A stretch of 30,595 nt of DNA, from positions 1-30,595 of IMG/VR virus record IMGVR_UViG_3300038422_000050; one strand, given 5' to 3'. Position 1 is the first letter of the stretch. Each line of letters begins with the position of its first letter. The position numbers and the translations under genes are program-made. The notes beneath the pieces were generated by a model. The model saw only the letters and a list, made by a program, of their open reading frames with translations, was not told the DNA's origin and ran no database searches. The DNA comes from a virus. Shown in pieces: positions 12,229-29,164 of this stretch.

Positions 12229-12356
12229 TCTCCCTCAAATAGGCGTCTTATCTCCTCTTTAACTGTATCCCTCACAATCTTGGGGATGGAGGATAGGAGA
12301 ACCACGTTTATACATAGAATCGCTAGAATCAGCAATAGGAACAGTTCAAGCATCAT
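12225..12356 (-). CDS. 43-residue single-pass membrane microprotein
   Basis: A small frame links two glycosyltransferase genes by stop/start overlaps at both ends: its ATG-ATG overlaps the upstream TGA (12353-12355), and its TGA overlaps the next ATG (12225-12228). The product starts MMLELFLLLILAILCINVVL, one hydrophobic segment of about 20 residues, and ends in a charged amphipathic tail (KIVRDTVKEEIRRLFEGE). The tight double overlap is strong evidence that it is translated. It could anchor a glycosyltransferase at the membrane or bring enzymes together; this is inference. No family is recognised. Confidence 0.78.
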   Translation of the reverse strand: MMLELFLLLILAILCINVVLLSSIPKIVRDTVKEEIRRLFEGE

Positions 12357-13123
12357 ACCCGTGGCACCCTGACGTTCCCAGTTGACTCTATAACCACGTC
12401 ACCCATGTGGCTTAAACGCACGTCCGCTAGGCACCACGTCTTGTACCCCAGTTTCGCGGCTTTAACGAGAAAATCGAAGTCCTCGCTCATCGAGTCGGGG
12501 TGCTCCCAGTGGAAGAAGGGCTTCTCATCTGTGCCGTAGCCCGCGCCCCGCATCGCCTCAAGGACTCTGCGGCGCATCATCATCATGCCCATGCCTGCTA
12601 CGTCTACGGCGAAGAAGTTTGCTGTGAGCGGCTCCCAGTTCTGCACGTGCACGAAGCTCGGCTTGCCCTCGGGGGTGACGGCGTGGTTCCATATCGCGTA
12701 GTTGAAGCCGTGCTGCTGCTTGGCGCGGTAGAGGGCGGTGACGATGCTCTCCCCCGACTGCTCTAGGGCACGGTAGAGATGGTAGGCGGCTAGGTTGATG
12801 TCCCCTACCTCTATGGTTTTGCCGTCCTTATCCTCACCGATTTTGACGGTGGGCTTCTCAACGACGTGATCATGATCTATCCAGAGGGCGTACTCCGCGT
12901 TGCCCTCTAGGAATATCTTGGCTAGGGTGTTGCGGGCGTTGGGTAGGCTGGGTATGCGGCAGAGGTTGAATATCTTCTCGCACCATGGTGAGGGCTGGCA
13001 GAGGGGCTTCCACGTGGCTTCCACCCACTCGGCGTGCCAGTTGTCGCGGTGGGGTAGGAGCACGTGGATGAGTGGCTTCTTAGGTTGCTGAGAGGAATCT
13101 GTTGTTGGCTGTGTCCACGCCAT
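12353..13123 (-). CDS. GT-A-type glycosyltransferase (phage/virus-type, DxD)
   Basis: 256 residues. After a polar N-terminus comes HVLLPHRDNWHAEWVEATW, then ARNTLAKIFLEGNAEYALWIDHDHV with Asp83-His-Asp85 as the metal-binding DxD. GMGMMMMRRRVLEAM and SMSEDFDFLVKAAKLGYKTW form the catalytic E-D region typical of this fold, and ADVRLSHMGDVV carries the late His. It is the first gene of the long sugar operon and has its own TATA box centred 27 bases before the ATG. Membership of a GT-A family is clear; the specific class is not. Confidence 0.88.
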   Translation of the reverse strand: MAWTQPTTDSSQQPKKPLIHVLLPHRDNWHAEWVEATWKPLCQPSPWCEKIFNLCRIPSLPNARNTLAKIFLEGNAEYALWIDHDHVVEKPTVKIGEDKDGKTIEVGDINLAAYHLYRALEQSGESIVTALYRAKQQHGFNYAIWNHAVTPEGKPSFVHVQNWEPLTANFFAVDVAGMGMMMMRRRVLEAMRGAGYGTDEKPFFHWEHPDSMSEDFDFLVKAAKLGYKTWCLADVRLSHMGDVVIESTGNVRVPRV

Positions 13124-13173: not shown

Positions 13174-13641
13174 TTACTGGGTGGCTAGGATGACGCTGGC
13201 GGTGCCTGAGAATCCGGCTTGGAGGTTGGCGACGCCGACTTCGATGTACTGATATGCGCCGGTGACTGTGAGTGTTCCTTGGTTGCCGGAGGTTGCCACC
13301 ACGCCTGAGCCGATTATGGCGGGCGCGATGTTCTGTATGGCGTGCCCCCGCACGCGGTAGGATACCCCGCTTCCGCCTCCGAGGTAGTCCACGACTACTG
13401 AGGCTGTGTTCTTGTCGGTGAAGGCTGCGCCGCTGTAGGTGTAAGTGTCCATCGTGGCGAGCCCGGAGGCGAGGATGACTGCGCTTGTAGCTTTACGGGT
13501 TACAACCTGCTCTCCGCTGATTTTGACCACCTGTGTGGCGGGCAGAAATACGCCAACGCCGCTGAAACTTGTGGTGGTTACTGTGCCTGAGATTGTAACC
13601 GGTATCGGCGTGTCAAGGTTCTGCTTAAGAGTGTAACTCAT
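13174..13641 (-). CDS. Beta-rich virion protein, candidate capsid decoration/spike (paralogue of 13645-14010)
   Basis: 155 residues, almost all beta-strand and Ser/Thr/Gly/Val. It contains the pattern SYRVRGHAIQ ... TVTGAYQYIEVGVANLQAGFSGTASVIL. The neighbouring gene has the same core order (Y-T-V-R-G ... I-D-V-G-x-x-N-x2-S-N-Y-S-G-R-V-T-V-I), so the two look like diverged duplicates. Position at the end of the capsid module suggests an abundant virion surface protein (decoration, spike or tail tube). No named family is recognised. The ATG has a GAGGATGAT site just upstream. Confidence 0.75.
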   Translation of the reverse strand: MSYTLKQNLDTPIPVTISGTVTTTSFSGVGVFLPATQVVKISGEQVVTRKATSAVILASGLATMDTYTYSGAAFTDKNTASVVVDYLGGGSGVSYRVRGHAIQNIAPAIIGSGVVATSGNQGTLTVTGAYQYIEVGVANLQAGFSGTASVILATQ

Positions 13642-13644
13642 CTA

Positions 13645-14010
13645 TCATCCTCTCCTCTTCATTGTCGCTATGACTGTAACCCTGCCGCTGTAATTCGACG
13701 CCGTGTTCTTACCCCCAACGTCAATCTTGTCATACGGGTTCGAGAACACCAAGTAGTGAATGTCCCCGCTGACCATCGCCGTGTCAGCCTTAATCGTGTT
13801 CGTGTACCCCGGCGCGAGAAGCGCGGCGAGAGCCGGTCCCTCGCTGGACGGGTAGCCGCGCACAGTGTAGGTTACGCCGCTCTGCGACTGGTTCGCTATG
13901 ATGGTGAGGGCTACCTCGCTGAAGCCCTTCACGTCTTGTTTCGCCGTGTACGCGTACGCGTTGCCTGTCACGTAGCTGCTCCACAGAACCTCGCTTCTTC
14001 CGCCTGACAT
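13645..14010 (-). CDS. Beta-rich virion protein, candidate capsid decoration/spike
   Basis: 121 residues from ATG at 14010, chosen because GGAGG lies about 9 bases upstream; a GTG at 14025 would add five residues and overlap the preceding gene. The product has VLWSSYVTGNAYAY, VALTIIANQSQSGVTYTVRGY, DIHYLVFSNPYDKIDVGG and GRVTVIATMKRRG: a compact beta sandwich sharing its core pattern with the next gene downstream. It is probably an external virion protein and a possible acceptor for the virally encoded glycan (several N-x-S/T sites such as NQS and NYS). No family recognised. Confidence 0.75.
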   Translation of the reverse strand: MSGGRSEVLWSSYVTGNAYAYTAKQDVKGFSEVALTIIANQSQSGVTYTVRGYPSSEGPALAALLAPGYTNTIKADTAMVSGDIHYLVFSNPYDKIDVGGKNTASNYSGRVTVIATMKRRG

Positions 14011-18109: not shown

Positions 18110-18114
18110 TTTTT
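18110..18114 (+). terminator. Oligo-T terminator after the sulfatase-like gene
   Basis: Five T residues start three bases after the TAA stop (AACGTTTTTATATTC), the usual archaeal intrinsic termination signal. Two further TTATTTTTAG runs follow at 18131-18140 and 18234-18243, each within an exact 12-base copy of CCTTATTTTTAG. Confidence 0.55.
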
Positions 18115-18148
18115 ATATTCACACAGCCCCTTATTTTTAGTAGTGTAA

Positions 18149-18218
18149 GGTTCGGTATGGTGCGGCCAGGTTTGGTGGGGTTAGGTGGGGTATGGTTGGG
18201 TATGGTATGGTAAGGTTT
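18149..18218 (+). repeat. GGYNN pentamer tract 1 (14 units in perfect 5-base phase)
   Basis: Fourteen consecutive 5-base units, each beginning GG, with T (once C) at position 3 and variable bases at positions 4-5: GGTTC, GGTAT, GGTGC, GGCCA and so on, ending GGTAA GGTTT. There is no slip in phase over 70 bases. It is preceded by CCTTATTTTTAG (18129-18140) and ends in GGTTTAAATAG, a TATA-like sequence. It is non-coding: the frames contain stops, and unit length is not a multiple of three. Not a simple microsatellite because two positions vary freely. Confidence 0.9.
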
Positions 18219-18252
18219 AAATAGTTAACCACCTTATTTTTAGACTATCCGT

Positions 18253-18337
18253 GGTGTGGTATGGCGTGGTTCGGTCCGGTGAGGCATGGTTTGGCACGAT
18301 GCGGTTGGGTGTGGTGAGGTCGGGTATGGTATGGCGA
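18253..18337 (+). repeat. GGYNN pentamer tract 2 (17 units in perfect 5-base phase)
   Basis: Seventeen units, 16 of them starting GG (one GATGC), position 3 always a pyrimidine in the GG units, positions 4-5 variable. A second copy of CCTTATTTTTAG (18232-18243) precedes it by nine bases, so tracts 1 and 2 look like two copies of one module about 103 bases long whose pentamer bodies have diverged while keeping phase. The tract ends 9 bases before the stop of the minus-strand dehydratase gene. Confidence 0.9.
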
Positions 18338-18345
18338 GGGAAACT

Positions 18346-19317
18346 CTAAGTAGAGTGAGTTGCACTACACCAGAACCACTTATTATCCATGAACCACTGG
18401 ATCGTGTCTTTCATGCCCTGCTCAAAACTCGTCTTTGGTTTCCATTTTAACTTGTAAACGAACTTGGAGCAATCTAAGGCATATCGTTCATCGTCTTTGA
18501 GTCGTCTGCCTTTGTAGCCGTCAAACAACTCATGCTTGCCCGTTAAGTCAAGTATTTTCTGTGCTACTTCAGACACAGTGAGGTAATCATCAGGCGGAAT
18601 GTGGTATATTTCTCCGGGGATGCCTCTCTCAGAAAGTAAATCTAATGCCGCACAAACATCCCTCACAAACGCCCACCCCCGCACCGAGTTACCCTCATAG
18701 AGCGTGAAGTGAGTGTCGTTGATACATCGAACAATTATTTTTGGTATAAGTTTCTCTGGGTGTTGGTACGGGCCATACATATTCATACTTCGAGTAATAA
18801 TGACGGGAACCTTGAAACTGTGATAGTATGCGTTGCAGAATGCCTCGGCTGCTGCTTTGCTTGCGCTATAAGGATTTCGGGGGGATAAAACATCGTCTTC
18901 ACGACAGAATTTTTCAGGTACGTCTCCGAACACCTCGTCGGTGCTCATCATTATCATCAGGGGCTTCTCCTCTAGGTGTTTCAGGACTTCAAGTATGGTG
19001 AAGGTGCCGTAGGTATTGGAGTCCAGAAACTCCTTCGGATAGTCGAATGAGCGGTCTACGTGGGTTGAGGCGGCTAGGTGGAATATCTTCTCTACCTTGT
19101 GCTTCTTTATGGTTTCTAGGAGCAGCAGTTCGTCGCGTATGTCGCCCTTCACGGCTACGTAGTTGGGGTTGTCGCTTAACTCTAGTGTGGAGGATGGGTT
19201 GTCGGCGTAGGTGTGTTTCGAGTATCCGATTACCGGGGTGCCCGGATGTGTTTTCAGCAGGTGGCGTACAAGGTTATTCCCAACGAAGCCCGTGCTGCCC
19301 GTAACAATTATGCTCGT
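18346..19317 (-). CDS. dTDP-glucose 4,6-dehydratase-like enzyme (RmlB family), apparent ACG start
   Basis: The body from 19152 has KIFHLAASTHVDRSF, MMSTDEVFGD (catalytic Thr-Asp-Glu), NPYSASKAAAE (YxxxK) and RSMNMYGPYQHPEKLIP, the signature set of RmlB-type dehydratases. The Rossmann start IIVTGSTGFVGNNL is encoded just upstream in the same frame, but no ATG, GTG or TTG lies between it and the preceding in-frame TGA. The best fit is ACG at 19317, exactly where an ATG would give M-S-I-I-V-T-G, with GGAGAGG about 10 bases upstream. With that start it has 323 residues, normal for the family. It converts an NDP-hexose to the 4-keto-6-deoxy sugar, which could feed the DegT aminotransferase. The start overlaps the upstream gene by 10 bases. 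Confidence 0.88.
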   Translation of the reverse strand, partial: TSIIVTGSTGFVGNNLVRHLLKTHPGTPVIGYSKHTYADNPSSTLELSDNPNYVAVKGDIRDELLLLETIKKHKVEKIFHLAASTHVDRSFDYPKEFLDSNTYGTFTILEVLKHLEEKPLMIMMSTDEVFGDVPEKFCREDDVLSPRNPYSASKAAAEAFCNAYYHSFKVPVIITRSMNMYGPYQHPEKLIPKIIVRCINDTHFTLYEGNSVRGWAFVRDVCAALDLLSERGIPGEIYHIPPDDYLTVSEVAQKILDLTGKHELFDGYKGRRLKDDERYALDCSKFVYKLKWKPKTSFEQGMKDTIQWFMDNKWFWCSATHST

Positions 19318-19652
19318 TGCCGCATCCTCTCCTCAACCATCATCCGGTACGGCTTGTAGTAGTTCACTGGGTTCTCAAGGGGCTTCTCGCGCCACTCGAT
19401 CATAACCGAGTCGGTGAGGGACTCCATCATGTGAGGCATCTCCGCCTCCGTGACGAACAGGGCGGGGGCGGCGTACGTCGCGTCCTTCTTTCTTAGCGTC
19501 ACCCACCGCACGGTGCCCTCCACGAGGACATTATACTGTCTCCCGGCGTGTATCTCTCCGCCGCGCATGTAGCCCTTCTTGGTGTATATCACCAGGTAGT
19601 CTCTGCCCATGAACGGCGTGACTGAGACTTCTCCACGTGTGTCAGACGCCAT
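19308..19652 (-). CDS. Unknown 114-residue protein in the second sugar cluster
   Basis: ATG at 19652 lies 26 bases after a TATA box (19675-19682), so it is the first gene of a transcript and probably leaderless. The protein is beta-rich at the start (VSVTPFMGRDYLVIYTKKGY, YNVLVEGTVRWVTLRKKD) and helical and charged at the end (IEWREKPLENPVNYYKPYRM, then a Met/Arg-rich tail). No cysteine pairs, membrane segments or known motifs. It is coupled to the dehydratase by a 10-base overlap. Function unknown; the first-gene position and charge suggest a small virion or assembly protein rather than a sugar enzyme. Confidence 0.7.
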   Translation of the reverse strand: MASDTRGEVSVTPFMGRDYLVIYTKKGYMRGGEIHAGRQYNVLVEGTVRWVTLRKKDATYAAPALFVTEAEMPHMMESLTDSVMIEWREKPLENPVNYYKPYRMMVEERMRQRA

Positions 19653-21330: not shown

Positions 21331-21725
21331 ACGTCATGCACCGTGAAGTTTGGCTCAAGCGGCGTCGGCTTAGGCACGTGCCGCTCCCTTATCTCCCTCT
21401 TCGTCTCAGTTCCCTCGAAGCTGCCCTTCATAGCTATCCTCCCACACTTCTTGCACTTGAGGCGTGGAATCCCCATGATGAAGCCCGTCTCCCATTGGTG
21501 GCGTCCGTCGCGGCATGAGAGGGGCGGGTTGAAGAACCGTGGGTGGTGGATCACCGTGGCGGGCGGCGTGGGTTGTATACCGAGCACCTGCTCGCGCACC
21601 TTCATCATGTCGAGCACGTGGGCGGTGTGCTTGCGCTGACGCTTAACCTCCTTGGAGTACAGCGTGTTGGTTGCGCCGAGGCGCTTGAGCGCGTAGTCTA
21701 AGGCTATCTGGTTCGGGTGGCTCAC
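21327..21725 (-). CDS. Small zinc-binding protein of the packaging module
   Basis: 132 residues; GTG start in a GTGA overlap with the portal stop. The central part has SCRDGRHQW and, 18 residues later, LKCKKCGRIAM, a likely Cys/His zinc knuckle. The N-terminal 50 residues are helical and basic (ALKRLGATNTLYSKEVKRQRKHT). A nucleic-acid or portal-associated role is plausible because the portal itself carries similar zinc knuckles. No named family recognised. Confidence 0.7.
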   Translation of the reverse strand: MSHPNQIALDYALKRLGATNTLYSKEVKRQRKHTAHVLDMMKVREQVLGIQPTPPATVIHHPRFFNPPLSCRDGRHQWETGFIMGIPRLKCKKCGRIAMKGSFEGTETKREIRERHVPKPTPLEPNFTVHDV

Positions 21726-23482
21726 TCCTTGTCGTCCTCCGGCTCCTGTATGGGAACCCCGTCGCCCTCGCCGCTGGGCATGGTTCTCTTCGGCGCTCCG
21801 TCTAAGTCCTGCGGAATCTTGCCGTCCTCAAGCCTGCTCCGCGCCTCCGGCGGGTTCGTCGGCTTATTCGACGTGGTGAAGGTTCTGCCGTCCTCCGAGA
21901 GGTCAACCTCGAAGCCCGCCGACAGCAGGAGGCTCACAGCCTGGGCGTTGGTCAGGATTATCTGCTTGTCGCGCAACTCGTCGCGGCTCTCAATCTTGCC
22001 GAAGCGGAGGCACCAGTCGGTTATCCCGAAGCGGGGGAGCAGGAAGTCGTTGAACGGGTTCTCTATGTCGTTCATGTCCTGGCGGGTGACGCGGTTCTGC
22101 ACGTCGATGTTGGGGCGAGCCGCCTGAGCGTTCTGCCCCGGCTCAACGATGTTGATGAAGGTGGGGGTGACGCCGAATAGCCCCGCCACTTTCTCGACGT
22201 AGAGGCGGTAGAACTCGATGCTCTGCATCTCGCTGAGCTTGGGGCTGATGTCTACGGGTATGATGCGTTTGCCCTGGTCGAGCCCGATTATCACCATTAT
22301 GGGTTCTAGGCTGAACTCTGTTTCGCCGGTGCGGGCGTCGCGCCTTATCTTGCTCTGAAGCTGGTTCTGGATGTGGGCGCGTATCTCCTCGGCCTTCTGC
22401 TTGTCGGCTCCCTCGATGCCTAGTATCTGGTTGGCGTGCCCGTGGCTGGTTATCTGTAGGTTGTACTCGTCGTAGAAGTCTATGACGTAGAGTAGTTTGA
22501 CGGCGGCTACCACCTTGCTCATGCCGAACGTCTCGGGGTCTACGCGGTCTGCGCTGCTGTGTATAACCTCGTCCTTGGTGAAGCGTGCCACTATCTTTCC
22601 GCTGAGTTTCTGGATGTACGCGGTCTGCTCAAGGGGTTCGCCGCATTCGGGGCACCGAGGGTCATTCGGGTTCACCCGGTTGTCGTTTGCCCTCAAGTCG
22701 TAGAATGTGTCCATGCCCGTCTTTATGCGCTGCGCCTTGTAGCATGTGCGGCAGAAGTACTCGGTGCTGGTGAACTCACCGTACTCGTTCATCACTGGGA
22801 ACGTTATGCTGCCGTCGAGCACCCCTATCTCGCGGGGGGTGCGCTTAACTGTCTGCGTCTCGGTGTCGAACGTCTTTGTGTGCCTTAGCTCCCAGTAGAA
22901 GTCGTCGAGGGCTATCTTGTACCAGAGGGTGCTGTAGATGAAGTTGTTGAACGTCCTGCCCTCGCCCATCAGGGAGCGTTTGCCGCGTTCAAGCCCGAGG
23001 AGCCTGCGAACGTTGTCGTACTGGTCGATGTCAGGCTTGTCGAAGCGCTTGCTGCCGCACACGTCGCACTCCTTGATGTCCGGGTTCTGGAACTCCTTCT
23101 TGCACTTGCGGCACTTCAACTTGAATCTGGGCTGGATGTCCCACCCCGGCGTAAGCACCTCGCCCACGCGGGCACGCATGATTGTCCTGAGCAGCCAGTG
23201 AATCTTGCTCATCTGCATGAACTTTGGGTACAGGTACTCGGGGGTGCGCTCAACCGCCGTTTCCCCGCCCTCGGCGAACACGGGTGCGCGGCTGTCCTTC
23301 ACTATTAGGCTTCCGCCCACGAGGTCTGTGAGGAGTCTGCTCGCCACGCGCTTCAGCACGGGCATCCGCTGTAGGGCTGACTCGTGTACTATTTGGCCCT
23401 CCCACATGCCGCGTCCCACTATGTCGTCTACGCTGGTTATGGGCCACACCCGGTCAAGTATCTTTTCGCTGTTTGCGCCCAT
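21722..23482 (-). CDS. Portal protein with two inserted zinc ribbons
   Basis: 586 residues, somewhat longer than common portals. Portal features are the early helical KRVASRLLTDLVGGSLIV region, DEVIHSSADRVDPETFGMSKV (wing/stem with the typical 'H-x-x' strand), SKLSEMQSIEFYRLYVEKVAGLFGVTP (clip/stem helix, where the exact text begins PKLSEM) and VQNRVTRQDMNDIENPFNDF. Two zinc ribbons interrupt the wing region: Cys124/127/139/142 and Cys244/247/277/280. The C-terminal tail is acidic. It follows the terminase by 47 bases with its own TATA promoter, identical in 25 bases to that of the LamG gene. ATG 23482 gives a leader of a few bases. Confidence 0.85.
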   Translation of the reverse strand: MGANSEKILDRVWPITSVDDIVGRGMWEGQIVHESALQRMPVLKRVASRLLTDLVGGSLIVKDSRAPVFAEGGETAVERTPEYLYPKFMQMSKIHWLLRTIMRARVGEVLTPGWDIQPRFKLKCRKCKKEFQNPDIKECDVCGSKRFDKPDIDQYDNVRRLLGLERGKRSLMGEGRTFNNFIYSTLWYKIALDDFYWELRHTKTFDTETQTVKRTPREIGVLDGSITFPVMNEYGEFTSTEYFCRTCYKAQRIKTGMDTFYDLRANDNRVNPNDPRCPECGEPLEQTAYIQKLSGKIVARFTKDEVIHSSADRVDPETFGMSKVVAAVKLLYVIDFYDEYNLQITSHGHANQILGIEGADKQKAEEIRAHIQNQLQSKIRRDARTGETEFSLEPIMVIIGLDQGKRIIPVDISPKLSEMQSIEFYRLYVEKVAGLFGVTPTFINIVEPGQNAQAARPNIDVQNRVTRQDMNDIENPFNDFLLPRFGITDWCLRFGKIESRDELRDKQIILTNAQAVSLLLSAGFEVDLSEDGRTFTTSNKPTNPPEARSRLEDGKIPQDLDGAPKRTMPSGEGDGVPIQEPEDDKE

Positions 23483-25366: not shown

Positions 25367-25756
25367 ATGACAGCACTCCCAGAGCGGGGATTCAAAACAG
25401 TCACCTTCGCCGAGTTTCGCGCCATGAAGATATCCCGCCTCACCCCTCGCCCCCTAGCCGTGTTCGTCAACAAGCGCACCGCGTTCCAGCCCCCGGCGGA
25501 CTCGCTGTGGAGAACCAACGACCTTAAGAGCCGAGCCAAACACGATAGATTCATAGACCCGTACCGGAAAGGCGCGTACGAGAGGGAGTATCGAGGCATG
25601 GTCGTCAGGAGCAGCAGGGCGCTCAAGGAGCTGCGCGAGATAGCGGGGGAGAGCAAGAGGCGGCTCGTCCTCATGGTGAGCAACGAGGACAGACCGGACG
25701 CCGCCATACTGGTGAAGATGGCGACGGAGTTTATGAACAAGGCGGTGTGGACGTGA
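25367..25756 (+). CDS. Unknown 129-residue protein, first gene of plus-strand cluster
   Basis: ATG follows a TATA box by about 30 bases. The protein is basic and mixed alpha/beta: PERGFKTVTFAEFRAMKISRL, then a strand-like RPLAVFVNKRTAF, a basic helical middle, and a C-terminal RRLVLMVSNEDRPDAAILVKMATEF that looks like a strand-helix of a small alpha/beta fold. No Cys pair, membrane segment or catalytic motif identified. It is overlapped by the next gene (GTGA). Its place opposite the terminase suggests a packaging or regulatory gene. Function unknown. Confidence 0.72.
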   Translation: MTALPERGFKTVTFAEFRAMKISRLTPRPLAVFVNKRTAFQPPADSLWRTNDLKSRAKHDRFIDPYRKGAYEREYRGMVVRSSRALKELREIAGESKRRLVLMVSNEDRPDAAILVKMATEFMNKAVWT

Positions 25757-27795: not shown

Positions 27796-28059
27796 TTAGC
27801 CACCAGGAGGCTTCGGAGCCATAGCCGCCAGCAGGTTCTCGATCACGTCACTCGCCATGAAGCCAAGCGCCACAGCCGACACATGACCCTCACCAAGCAA
27901 GTAACTAACACCGCCCCCAAGCCCACCCAGAAACAGCAGACTCACAGGACGAGGCAGAGCAGCAGGCCACTTGTCGTCACGGTAGATTTGCAGCGCAAGC
28001 CTACCAGCAGAGCCGACCAAACCCAGAGCAACCCAGACCAACCAAACAGGAAACTCCAT
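27796..28059 (-). CDS. Holin-like small membrane protein
   Basis: 87 residues from ATG 28059, chosen because the TATA centre lies 27 bases away; a TTG six codons upstream would precede the predicted transcript. It has a hydrophobic N-terminal helix (FPVWLVWVALGLVGSAG), a basic/aromatic turn (LQIYRDDKWPA), then two more hydrophobic segments (VSLLFLGGLGGGVSYLLG and SAVALGFMASDVIENLL) and a short Pro/Gly tail. Size, three membrane segments and position ahead of a hydrolase gene fit a holin. Holin families in archaeal viruses are poorly defined, so this is an inference from layout. Confidence 0.72.
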   Translation of the reverse strand: MEFPVWLVWVALGLVGSAGRLALQIYRDDKWPAALPRPVSLLFLGGLGGGVSYLLGEGHVSAVALGFMASDVIENLLAAMAPKPPGG

Positions 28060-28082
28060 ACATAAACACACACACAACCAAA

Positions 28083-28097
28083 CATAAAAGAGTATCT
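28083..28097 (-). promoter_or_regulatory. TATA/BRE promoter of the holin-hydrolase operon
   Basis: Minus-strand AGATACTCTTTTATG; the box CTTTTATG is centred 27 bases before ATG 28059. The ATACTCTTTTAT core equals that of the sugar-operon promoter at 13146-13164. It begins immediately after the last unit of pentamer tract 3, leaving no spacer. Confidence 0.75.
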
Positions 28098-28182
28098 AAA
28101 CCACACCCCGCCACACCACACCAAGCCAAGCCCCACCACACCCCACCCGACCAGGCCGAACCACACCAGACCCCACCTAACC
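28098..28182 (-). repeat. GGYNN pentamer tract 3 (17 units, opposite orientation)
   Basis: Read on the minus strand there are 17 consecutive units without a slip: GG always at positions 1-2, T or C at position 3, and two free positions (GGTTA, GGTGG, GGTCT, GGTGT ... GGCGG, GGTGT, GGTTT). It ends GGTTTAGATA, like tract 1 which ends GGTTTAAATA. It sits directly upstream of a TATA box. Orientation is inverted relative to tracts 1 and 2. Confidence 0.9.
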
Positions 28183-28254
28183 ACAACACACAAACAAACA
28201 CCCCAAAACATAAAAACATTACGCACCCCCCAACCCAATACACACAAACCGCGA

Positions 28255-28431: not shown

Positions 28432-28515
28432 CTGATAAGGAAAAGCGGAGCTTAGTTATTGATGGGGTGTTGGTAGATTGTTGGTATGGTGTTGGTGGGG
28501 TAGGGTGTGTCCGTA

Positions 28516-28523
28516 ATCTTTAA
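28516..28523 (+). promoter_or_regulatory. TATA-like box of the coiled-coil membrane protein gene
   Basis: ATCTTTAAG preceded by CCGTA; centre about 38 bases before the GTG start at 28558, leaving a short leader that contains GGTGGTG as Shine-Dalgarno. Confidence 0.5.
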
Positions 28524-28557
28524 GTGTTGTTTGGGTGTTGTATGTATGGTGGTGTAG

Positions 28558-28812
28558 GTGGATCAGAGTAGGGTTATTAGTGTTGTTATGGTGGTGTGTT
28601 TCCTATCTGGTGTGCTAGTGGGTGCTTCTTATATGGGTGTTCAGTTTAACCAGGTTAAGGAATTGTTATCCGTCACTGAAAATCAGGTTGAGTTATTGCG
28701 GTCCCAAGTTGAGGTTCTTAAGGCTACTGTGAAGACTTTACAGGAATTGGTTAAGTTCTATGAGGATCTGCTAGGGATAACTAGGGTTCCCCGTGGTTTA
28801 CCTCAACTGTAA
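28558..28812 (+). CDS. Single-pass membrane coiled-coil protein
   Basis: 84 residues; GTG start with GGTGGTG just upstream, since an in-frame TAG immediately precedes it. Residues 7-27 (ISVVMVVCFLSGVLVGASY) are a membrane helix or uncleaved signal anchor. Residues 30-72 form a clear heptad coiled coil (V-K-E-L-L ... V-E-L-L-R-S-Q-V-E-V-L-K-A-T-V-K-T-L). A short Pro-rich tail follows. The design resembles envelope-spanning accessory or spanin-like proteins, but no family is recognised. It is a single-gene transcript ending at a T6 run. Confidence 0.75.
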   Translation: MDQSRVISVVMVVCFLSGVLVGASYMGVQFNQVKELLSVTENQVELLRSQVEVLKATVKTLQELVKFYEDLLGITRVPRGLPQL

Positions 28813-28822
28813 AACTTTATTG

Positions 28823-28828
28823 TTTTTT
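28823..28828 (+). terminator. Oligo-T terminator
   Basis: A run of six T (TTATTGTTTTTTCTCTG) begins 11 bases after the TAA stop of the coiled-coil gene; archaeal polymerases terminate at such tracts. Confidence 0.6.
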
Positions 28829-28879
28829 CTCTGTTTATCTACAAGTGTTAAGGTTTAGGAAAATAAAATAGGGGTTGGG

Positions 28880-28996
28880 TTAGTGGGGTTTTGAGGTTTT
28901 GCCTAGATATGTTTTACAGTGTTTACACAACCACCATTTAGAGCCGAAGGGCAGGGTAACTTTTACGGCTTCGTTTCCACATTCAGTACACTTCAT
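28880..28996 (-). CDS. 38-residue zinc-ribbon microprotein
   Basis: A frame from ATG 28996 to TAA 28880. The product begins MKCTECGNEAVKVTLPFGSK and goes on with WWLCKHCKTYLG: a minimal zinc ribbon with C-x2-C ... C-x2-C spaced 20 residues apart, then a basic tail. A TATA box (TTTTTTAAACC) is centred 27 bases before the ATG, and TTTTATTTTCC follows the stop on the minus strand. Complete zinc ribbon plus promoter plus terminator make this a convincing gene despite its size. Role unknown, probably nucleic-acid or protein binding. Confidence 0.75.
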   Translation of the reverse strand: MKCTECGNEAVKVTLPFGSKWWLCKHCKTYLGKTSKPH

Positions 28997-29017
28997 ATTA
29001 TGTTCCTGTATTTATGG

Positions 29018-29028
29018 GTTTAAAAAAT
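29018..29028 (-). promoter_or_regulatory. TATA box of the zinc-ribbon microprotein gene
   Basis: Minus-strand ATTTTTTAAACCC within an A/T-rich region; centre 27 bases from ATG 28996. A further CTTATATAT lies just upstream and might be the true box with a longer leader. Confidence 0.6.
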
Positions 29029-29044
29029 ATATAAGAGTTGGGGT

Positions 29045-29164
29045 TTATTTGTTGTTTGCTTCTATCAGGGTGTGGGTTTTATCTACGCCGTAGAGTTTCA
29101 CCAAGTAGGCTATGTTTAGTTTGTACTGTTGGGCGTCGCGGTCTTTGGGTGTCTGTGTCTGCAT
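29045..29164 (-). CDS. 39-residue hypothetical protein
   Basis: Frame from ATG 29164 to TAA 29045. The product starts MQTQTPKDRDAQQYKLNIAY and ends LVKLYGVDKTHTLIEANNK: a helical, soluble, slightly basic peptide. Codon use is normal and GC content is higher than in the flanking G/T-rich spacers, which supports coding. A CCTTAACCC box at about 26 bases upstream could serve as promoter. No family recognised. Confidence 0.55.
   Translation of the reverse strand: MQTQTPKDRDAQQYKLNIAYLVKLYGVDKTHTLIEANNK

What the first reader, a model, noticed from the sequence alone, without database searches (positions are those of the whole stretch)
28098..28182. Third GGYNN tract, inverted, fused directly to a promoter
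Seventeen perfect-phase units on the minus strand end GGTTTAGATACTC and run straight into the BRE/TATA of the holin-like gene. Tract 1 also ends GGTTTAAATA. The shared junction suggests the tract is an upstream activating or silencing element whose 3' edge is set by a TATA box, possibly timing lysis genes.
Basis: partly seen in the sequence, partly recalled or inferred. Interest (0 to 1): 0.82.

Follow-up and report, generated by a model that had tools for sequence, protein, structure and literature searches.

The report
VIPR-like guide-RNA tracts in archaeal virus
Three stretches of the repeating code GGY-NN in this archaeal virus look like guide RNAs of the newly described VIPR system, with which viruses silence rival viruses; each has its own promoter-like box, but the VIPR protein gene was not found on this fragment.

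Summary
The tract is real: 17 perfect GGYNN units on the minus strand (28098-28182), far beyond chance. It is most likely not an activator or silencer site for the membrane-protein gene. It has the repeat format of a VIPR guide RNA (vrRNA), described in a 2026 preprint (PMC13142463): GGY is scaffold, and the variable NN pairs base-pair with target DNA, skipping one base between pairs. I scanned viral contigs for GGYNN arrays and clustered neighbouring proteins without a reference protein. One ~200-aa family emerged in 88 of 116 array-bearing loci. It matches the solved SUSP1 Vipr protein (E=1.4e-40) and folds like CRISPR Csm/Cas7 RAMPs. An archaeal element also carries arrays plus this Vipr. 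The window virus is an archaeal tailed virus (capsid relatives HVTV-1 and HCTV-1). Each tract has a TATA-like octamer 33-38 nt upstream. Not met or unresolved: no Vipr of the searched family in this fragment, no common 3' tail, no convincing target. Best filed as vrRNA-like guides of a variant, possibly Vipr-less, locus.

The parts
28098..28182 (-). GGYNN tract 3, 17 perfect units; vrRNA-like guide. NN string TA GG CT GT TC CT CG GG GT GG TT TT GT GT GG GT TT
28208..28215 (-). TATA-like octamer TTTTATGT, 33 nt upstream of tract 3: putative promoter of the tract 3 RNA
   Evidence: identical octamer precedes the 27796-28059 gene; inference
28082..28089 (-). TATA-like octamer TTTTATGT, 30 nt upstream of ATG 28059: putative leaderless promoter of the small membrane-protein gene; tract 3 ends 8 nt before it
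   Evidence: inference
27796..28059 (-). 87-aa probable membrane-protein gene, downstream neighbour of tract 3; function unknown
   Evidence: no family match
18149..18218 (+). GGYNN tract 1, 14 units; vrRNA-like guide
18111..18118 (+). TATA-like octamer TTTTATAT, 38 nt upstream of tract 1 (same octamer precedes gene 12353-13123)
   Evidence: inference
18253..18337 (+). GGYNN tract 2, 17 units with one broken (GATGC); vrRNA-like guide. Part of its NN string reads, on the opposite strand at codon positions 1-2, V[NK][IM]SG[DE]T[IM]T
18216..18223 (+). TATA-like octamer TTTAAATA, 37 nt upstream of tract 2, overlapping the last unit (GGTTT) of tract 1
   Evidence: inference

Best explanation
The tract (and tracts 1 and 2) is the repeat part of a VIPR-type guide RNA (vrRNA). 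It is probably transcribed from its own archaeal promoter, whose TATA box lies about 33-38 nt upstream. GGY triplets would be gripped by RAMP (Vipr) subunits. The variable NN dinucleotides would together specify a double-stranded DNA target by non-contiguous pairing, with one base skipped between dinucleotides, so that the complex represses genes of a competing virus or mobile element. Shown here: the tract, its improbability, the identical grammar, and the association of such arrays with Vipr in other viruses and in one archaeal element. Inferred: transcription, Vipr binding, targeting and repression in this virus. Vipr would have to come from the missing part of this genome, from a divergent gene, or from another element.
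For: The window has three phased GGYNN tracts, not explained by composition. The preprint defines vrRNAs as 9-16 GGY/NN repeats bound by Vipr, with a 1-nt-skip DNA code. An unsupervised test in 116 array-bearing viral loci gave one dominant neighbour family in 88 loci. That family matches SUSP1 ORF 28477-29079 (E=2.2e-41), which lies between SUSP1's own arrays, matches PDB chain 36pp_D 'SUSP1 Vipr protein' at E=1.4e-40, and folds like Csm/Cas7-type RAMPs (pLDDT 91; Foldseek best E=1e-6). 252 of 259 tract-gene pairs are on the Vipr strand. An archaeal element, G174:C2, has three arrays, Vipr (E=3e-44) and repeated tails, so VIPR occurs in archaea. The window virus is archaeal: its capsid protein matches HVTV-1, HCTV-1 and HCTV-5 at E about 1e-24. 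TATA-like octamers identical to those before window genes lie 38, 37 and 33 nt before the three tracts; 3.5% of noncoding positions have one 24-40 nt upstream (octamer set chosen after inspection).
Against: No Vipr of the searched family in the window by two profiles (own HMM best E=2; phrog_4652). The three 3' flanks share no tail, and none folds clearly better than shuffles as a tail. No full-length target was found: best 25/34 (tract 2), 22/28 (tract 1), 23/34 (tract 3), which are chance levels. Two tracts have 17 units, one more than the published 9-16. Transcription was not observed.
Confidence: 0.85

Rival explanations
1. The tract is a cis-acting DNA or RNA element: an upstream activating or silencing site for the membrane-protein promoter, bound by a viral protein every 5 bp.
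For: The tract ends 8 nt before a plausible TATA box 30 nt upstream of ATG 28059.
Against: Tracts 1 and 2 do not precede a gene in the same way: tract 2 runs up to the 3' end of a convergent epimerase gene. Random NN between strict GGY is the published guide grammar. The same grammar is linked to Vipr in 88 of 116 loci.
Confidence: 0.06
2. The tract forms two-quartet G-quadruplexes (GG every 5 nt) that control transcription or replication.
For: GG repeats with 3-nt loops could form two-quartet quadruplexes in principle (established knowledge, not tested here).
Against: A quadruplex needs only the GG pairs, yet position 3 is C or T in all but one unit of the three tracts, and across the 88 Vipr loci it shifts from C towards T with lower genome GC (correlation -0.49). 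Strict Y and the Vipr linkage are not explained by quadruplexes.
Confidence: 0.04
3. A neutral, decaying simple-sequence repeat produced by slippage.
For: Simple identical pentamer repeats do occur in archaeal genomes.
Against: In the tracts the NN positions are varied while GGY is kept in 47 of 48 units over three separate tracts; decay would hit GGY too.
Confidence: 0.03

Closest known systems
VIPR vrRNAs (Escherichia phage SUSP1 clade; PMC13142463)
   Same: Alternating GGY/NN repeats in phase, noncoding, in a tailed virus, several guides per genome.
   Different: The SUSP1 arrays lie on the same strand beside vipr and share a 3' tail. The window tracts lie 10 kb apart on opposite strands, lack a common tail, have archaeal TATA-like boxes, and no vipr is seen.
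VIPR of archaeal element G174:C2 (found here; L409, L410)
   Same: Archaeal extrachromosomal or virus-like DNA with degenerate GGYNN arrays of up to 17 units.
   Different: Has a Vipr gene directly after an array and a repeated hairpin-like tail between arrays.
Single tract in archaeal element G201:C135 (found here; L408)
   Same: GGT-type tract in an archaeal provirus-like element without a detectable Vipr of the same family.
   Different: Only one tract, 11 units.
Class 1 CRISPR crRNA with Cas7/Csm3-type backbone
   Same: RNA guide held by repeated RAMP subunits; the family found beside arrays has this fold.
   Different: No CRISPR array, no contiguous spacer, no cas genes found in the window.

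Membership tests
VIPR vrRNA | Tandem GGY/NN repeats in phase with hypervariable NN (9-16 units reported) | tested here: met
   14, 17 (one broken) and 17 units; shuffles never exceed 6. Two tracts are one unit longer than the published range.
VIPR vrRNA | Invariable, structured 3' tail after the repeats (shown for the SUSP1 and P. fulva clades) | tested here: not met
   The three 3' flanks differ in sequence; tail folds have z-scores 0.87, -0.90 and -0.42.
VIPR system | A Vipr (RAMP) gene in the same element, usually beside the guides | tested here: inconclusive
   Not found by own Vipr HMM or phrog_4652. But this is a linear virus record with an ORF open at its left end, and other Vipr types were not available as profiles.
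VIPR vrRNA | NN string matches a competitor's DNA under the 1-nt skip rule | tested here: inconclusive
   No full match. Tract 2 units 1-9 match 19 viral contigs, all at one motif V[NK][IM]SG[DE]T[IM]T with the skipped base at the wobble position, but the match does not extend.
VIPR vrRNA | Transcribed as a ~100-nt RNA that co-purifies with Vipr | not testable with these tools
   TATA-like octamers 33-38 nt upstream are compatible with it.
Archaeal upstream regulatory element | Tract occupies the same position relative to gene promoters each time | tested here: not met
   Tract 3 precedes a gene promoter, tract 1 precedes tract 2, tract 2 precedes the 3' end of a convergent gene.

The most novel reading that the evidence does not exclude
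Guide-only VIPR: an archaeal tailed virus carries individually promoted, tail-less vrRNA cassettes scattered in its genome and uses a Vipr supplied by another element or the host, or a Vipr type not yet known. Compatible observations: no Vipr of the known family on 30.6 kb here, none in archaeal element L408, and none in 6 of 21 array-bearing viral loci with 3 kb on both sides.
Probability: 0.3. Interest if true: 0.78.

Novelty: new variant of a known kind. Interest (0 to 1): 0.62.

Why it matters
VIPR is a newly reported RNA-guided DNA-recognition system proposed as the ancestor of CRISPR. Candidate guides in an archaeal tailed virus, each with its own TATA-like box and with no known-family Vipr nearby, would extend it to another virus group. 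They would also raise the testable question of whether guides can travel without their protein. The decoded NN strings give explicit, checkable target predictions.

Tried and rejected
TerL search for relatives in viral contigs: none. TerL in 393 genomes of the archaeal phylum of L159: distant matches only (mostly 21-30% identity), so the host stays unknown. blastn of the region and of a 700-bp array in annotated phages: none. tblastn of a decoded peptide: none; the query is probably too short for it. Target scans of viral contigs with 8-9-unit patterns: nothing above chance except the tract 2 motif. Tract 2, 12 units with up to 3 mismatches, in 393 archaeal genomes: two matches with the same three mismatches, not taken as targets. 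Guide matches among 3.3 Mb of fetched loci did not exceed shuffled guides, so the 1-nt-skip code could be neither confirmed nor denied here. The genome contigs array scan returned mostly GC-rich bacterial loci that I did not follow up. A TATA-plus-tract pattern gave 10 viral loci, 8 of which carry the Vipr family. One unannotated 129-aa window protein (25367-25756) was folded as a possible Vipr: pLDDT 47.7, not interpretable. Self-targets in the window: none.

Full report
Observation. The tract is exactly as described: on the minus strand 28098-28182 there are 17 GGYNN units in phase, the last being GGTTT, followed by AGATACTCTTTTATG. Two further tracts lie on the plus strand, 18149-18218 (14 units) and 18253-18337 (17 units, one broken). 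Over the three tracts 47 of 48 units keep GGY, while NN is varied. Dinucleotide-preserving shuffles of the tracts themselves never gave a run above 6 in 5000, and shuffles of the window never above 5. The tracts do not lie in any recognised gene.

What carries such tracts elsewhere. After removing low-variety repeats, 313 degenerate arrays in 116 loci remained, many noncoding and some very long. Clustering all ORFs near these arrays, without any reference protein, gave one dominant family of about 205 aa in 88 of 116 loci, with a median distance to the nearest array of about 30-40 nt. 252 of 259 tract-gene pairs are on the same strand.

Identity of that system. A paper search led to PMC13142463 (2026 preprint), which reports VIPR: the Vipr RAMP protein plus vrRNAs made of alternating GGY/NN, where NN dinucleotides pair with double-stranded DNA with one base skipped, used against competing phages. 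The family found here by clustering matches the ORF between the arrays of phage SUSP1 (E=2.2e-41), the PDB sequence named 'SUSP1 Vipr protein' (36pp, E=1.4e-40) and PHROG 4652 in all 31 members tested. Its predicted fold (pLDDT 91) matches Csm/Cas7-type RAMPs. The guide grammar of the window is therefore that of VIPR.

The window virus. Its capsid protein is related to those of the haloarchaeal tailed viruses HVTV-1, HCTV-1 and HCTV-5 (26-28% identity, E about 1e-24), and its terminase to Halogranum tailed virus 1 among others. Several genes have TATA-like boxes about 30 nt before the start codon. It is therefore most likely an archaeal tailed virus; the host is unknown. That VIPR exists in archaea is shown by element G174:C2, found in a sample of the phylum of a haloarchaeal genome: three arrays, a Vipr gene (E=3e-44) and a repeated hairpin-like tail.

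Promoters and the shared junction. TATA-like octamers identical to octamers found before window genes lie 38, 37 and 33 nt upstream of tracts 1, 2 and 3. Only 3.5% of noncoding positions have one in the 24-40 nt range, although the octamer set was chosen after inspection. The box of tract 2 (TTTAAATA, 18216-18223) overlaps the last unit of tract 1. Tract 3 ends 8 nt before the putative TATA box (TTTTATGT, 28082-28089) of the downstream membrane-protein gene (ATG at 28059). A role in timing lysis has no support, and the gene is not shown to be a holin.

What is missing. No Vipr of this family is in the window by two profiles, but the record is linear with an ORF open at its left end, and profiles for other Vipr types were not available. 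The three 3' flanks do not share a tail. No target was identified. One suggestive point is that tract 2 units 1-9 match exactly in 19 viral contigs, all at one coding motif V[NK][IM]SG[DE]T[IM]T. It resembles the GDTMTG motif of phage tail-fibre proteins (own knowledge, not tested here), and the skipped base falls at the codon wobble position as the preprint describes. The match does not extend to the whole guide, and conserved motifs are over-represented in the collection, so this is weak evidence.

Verdict. The three tracts most likely are guide parts of VIPR-type RNAs in an archaeal tailed virus, carried in a form that lacks the shared tail and, on this fragment, the Vipr gene. They work like vrRNAs on present evidence; full membership in a VIPR locus is not shown.

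Noticed in passing
L409 and L410 (G174:C2, 37.5 kb): Archaeal extrachromosomal or virus-like contig with arrays near both ends of the contig, a Vipr gene (L410 16801-17340, minus) and hairpin-like repeated tails: a VIPR locus in archaea.
   Followed up: partly
L408 2304-2358 (minus): Archaeal element with one 11-unit GGT tract and no Vipr of the known family; another possible guide-only element.
   Followed up: partly
L033, L041, L068, L094, L099, L110: GGYNN tracts in viral contigs with 3 kb on both sides and no Vipr of the known family (6 of 21 such loci): orphan guides, other Vipr types, or coding tracts.
   Followed up: no
L417 13475-13524 (plus): A GGTNN tract lies antisense inside a viral ORF (13286-13906, minus) and encodes a linker-like stretch HTIPNHTQPYQTVPNQTV; coding and guide grammar coincide there.
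   Followed up: no
window upstream of 2320 and of 23482, minus strand: Genes 1559-2320 and 21722-23482 share a near-identical promoter-like sequence CTTTTCTTTATAAGGATGAACAACG.
   Followed up: no
window 18346-19320, minus strand: The sugar-nucleotide epimerase frame continues upstream of the first listed start codon (19152) into a Rossmann-like IIVTGSTGFVGNNL without an ATG, GTG or TTG start: non-canonical start or frameshift.
   Followed up: partly
window 18129-18140 and 18232-18243: The sequence CCTTATTTTTAG occurs just before both plus-strand tracts; it may be a T-rich terminator or part of the promoter.
   Followed up: no
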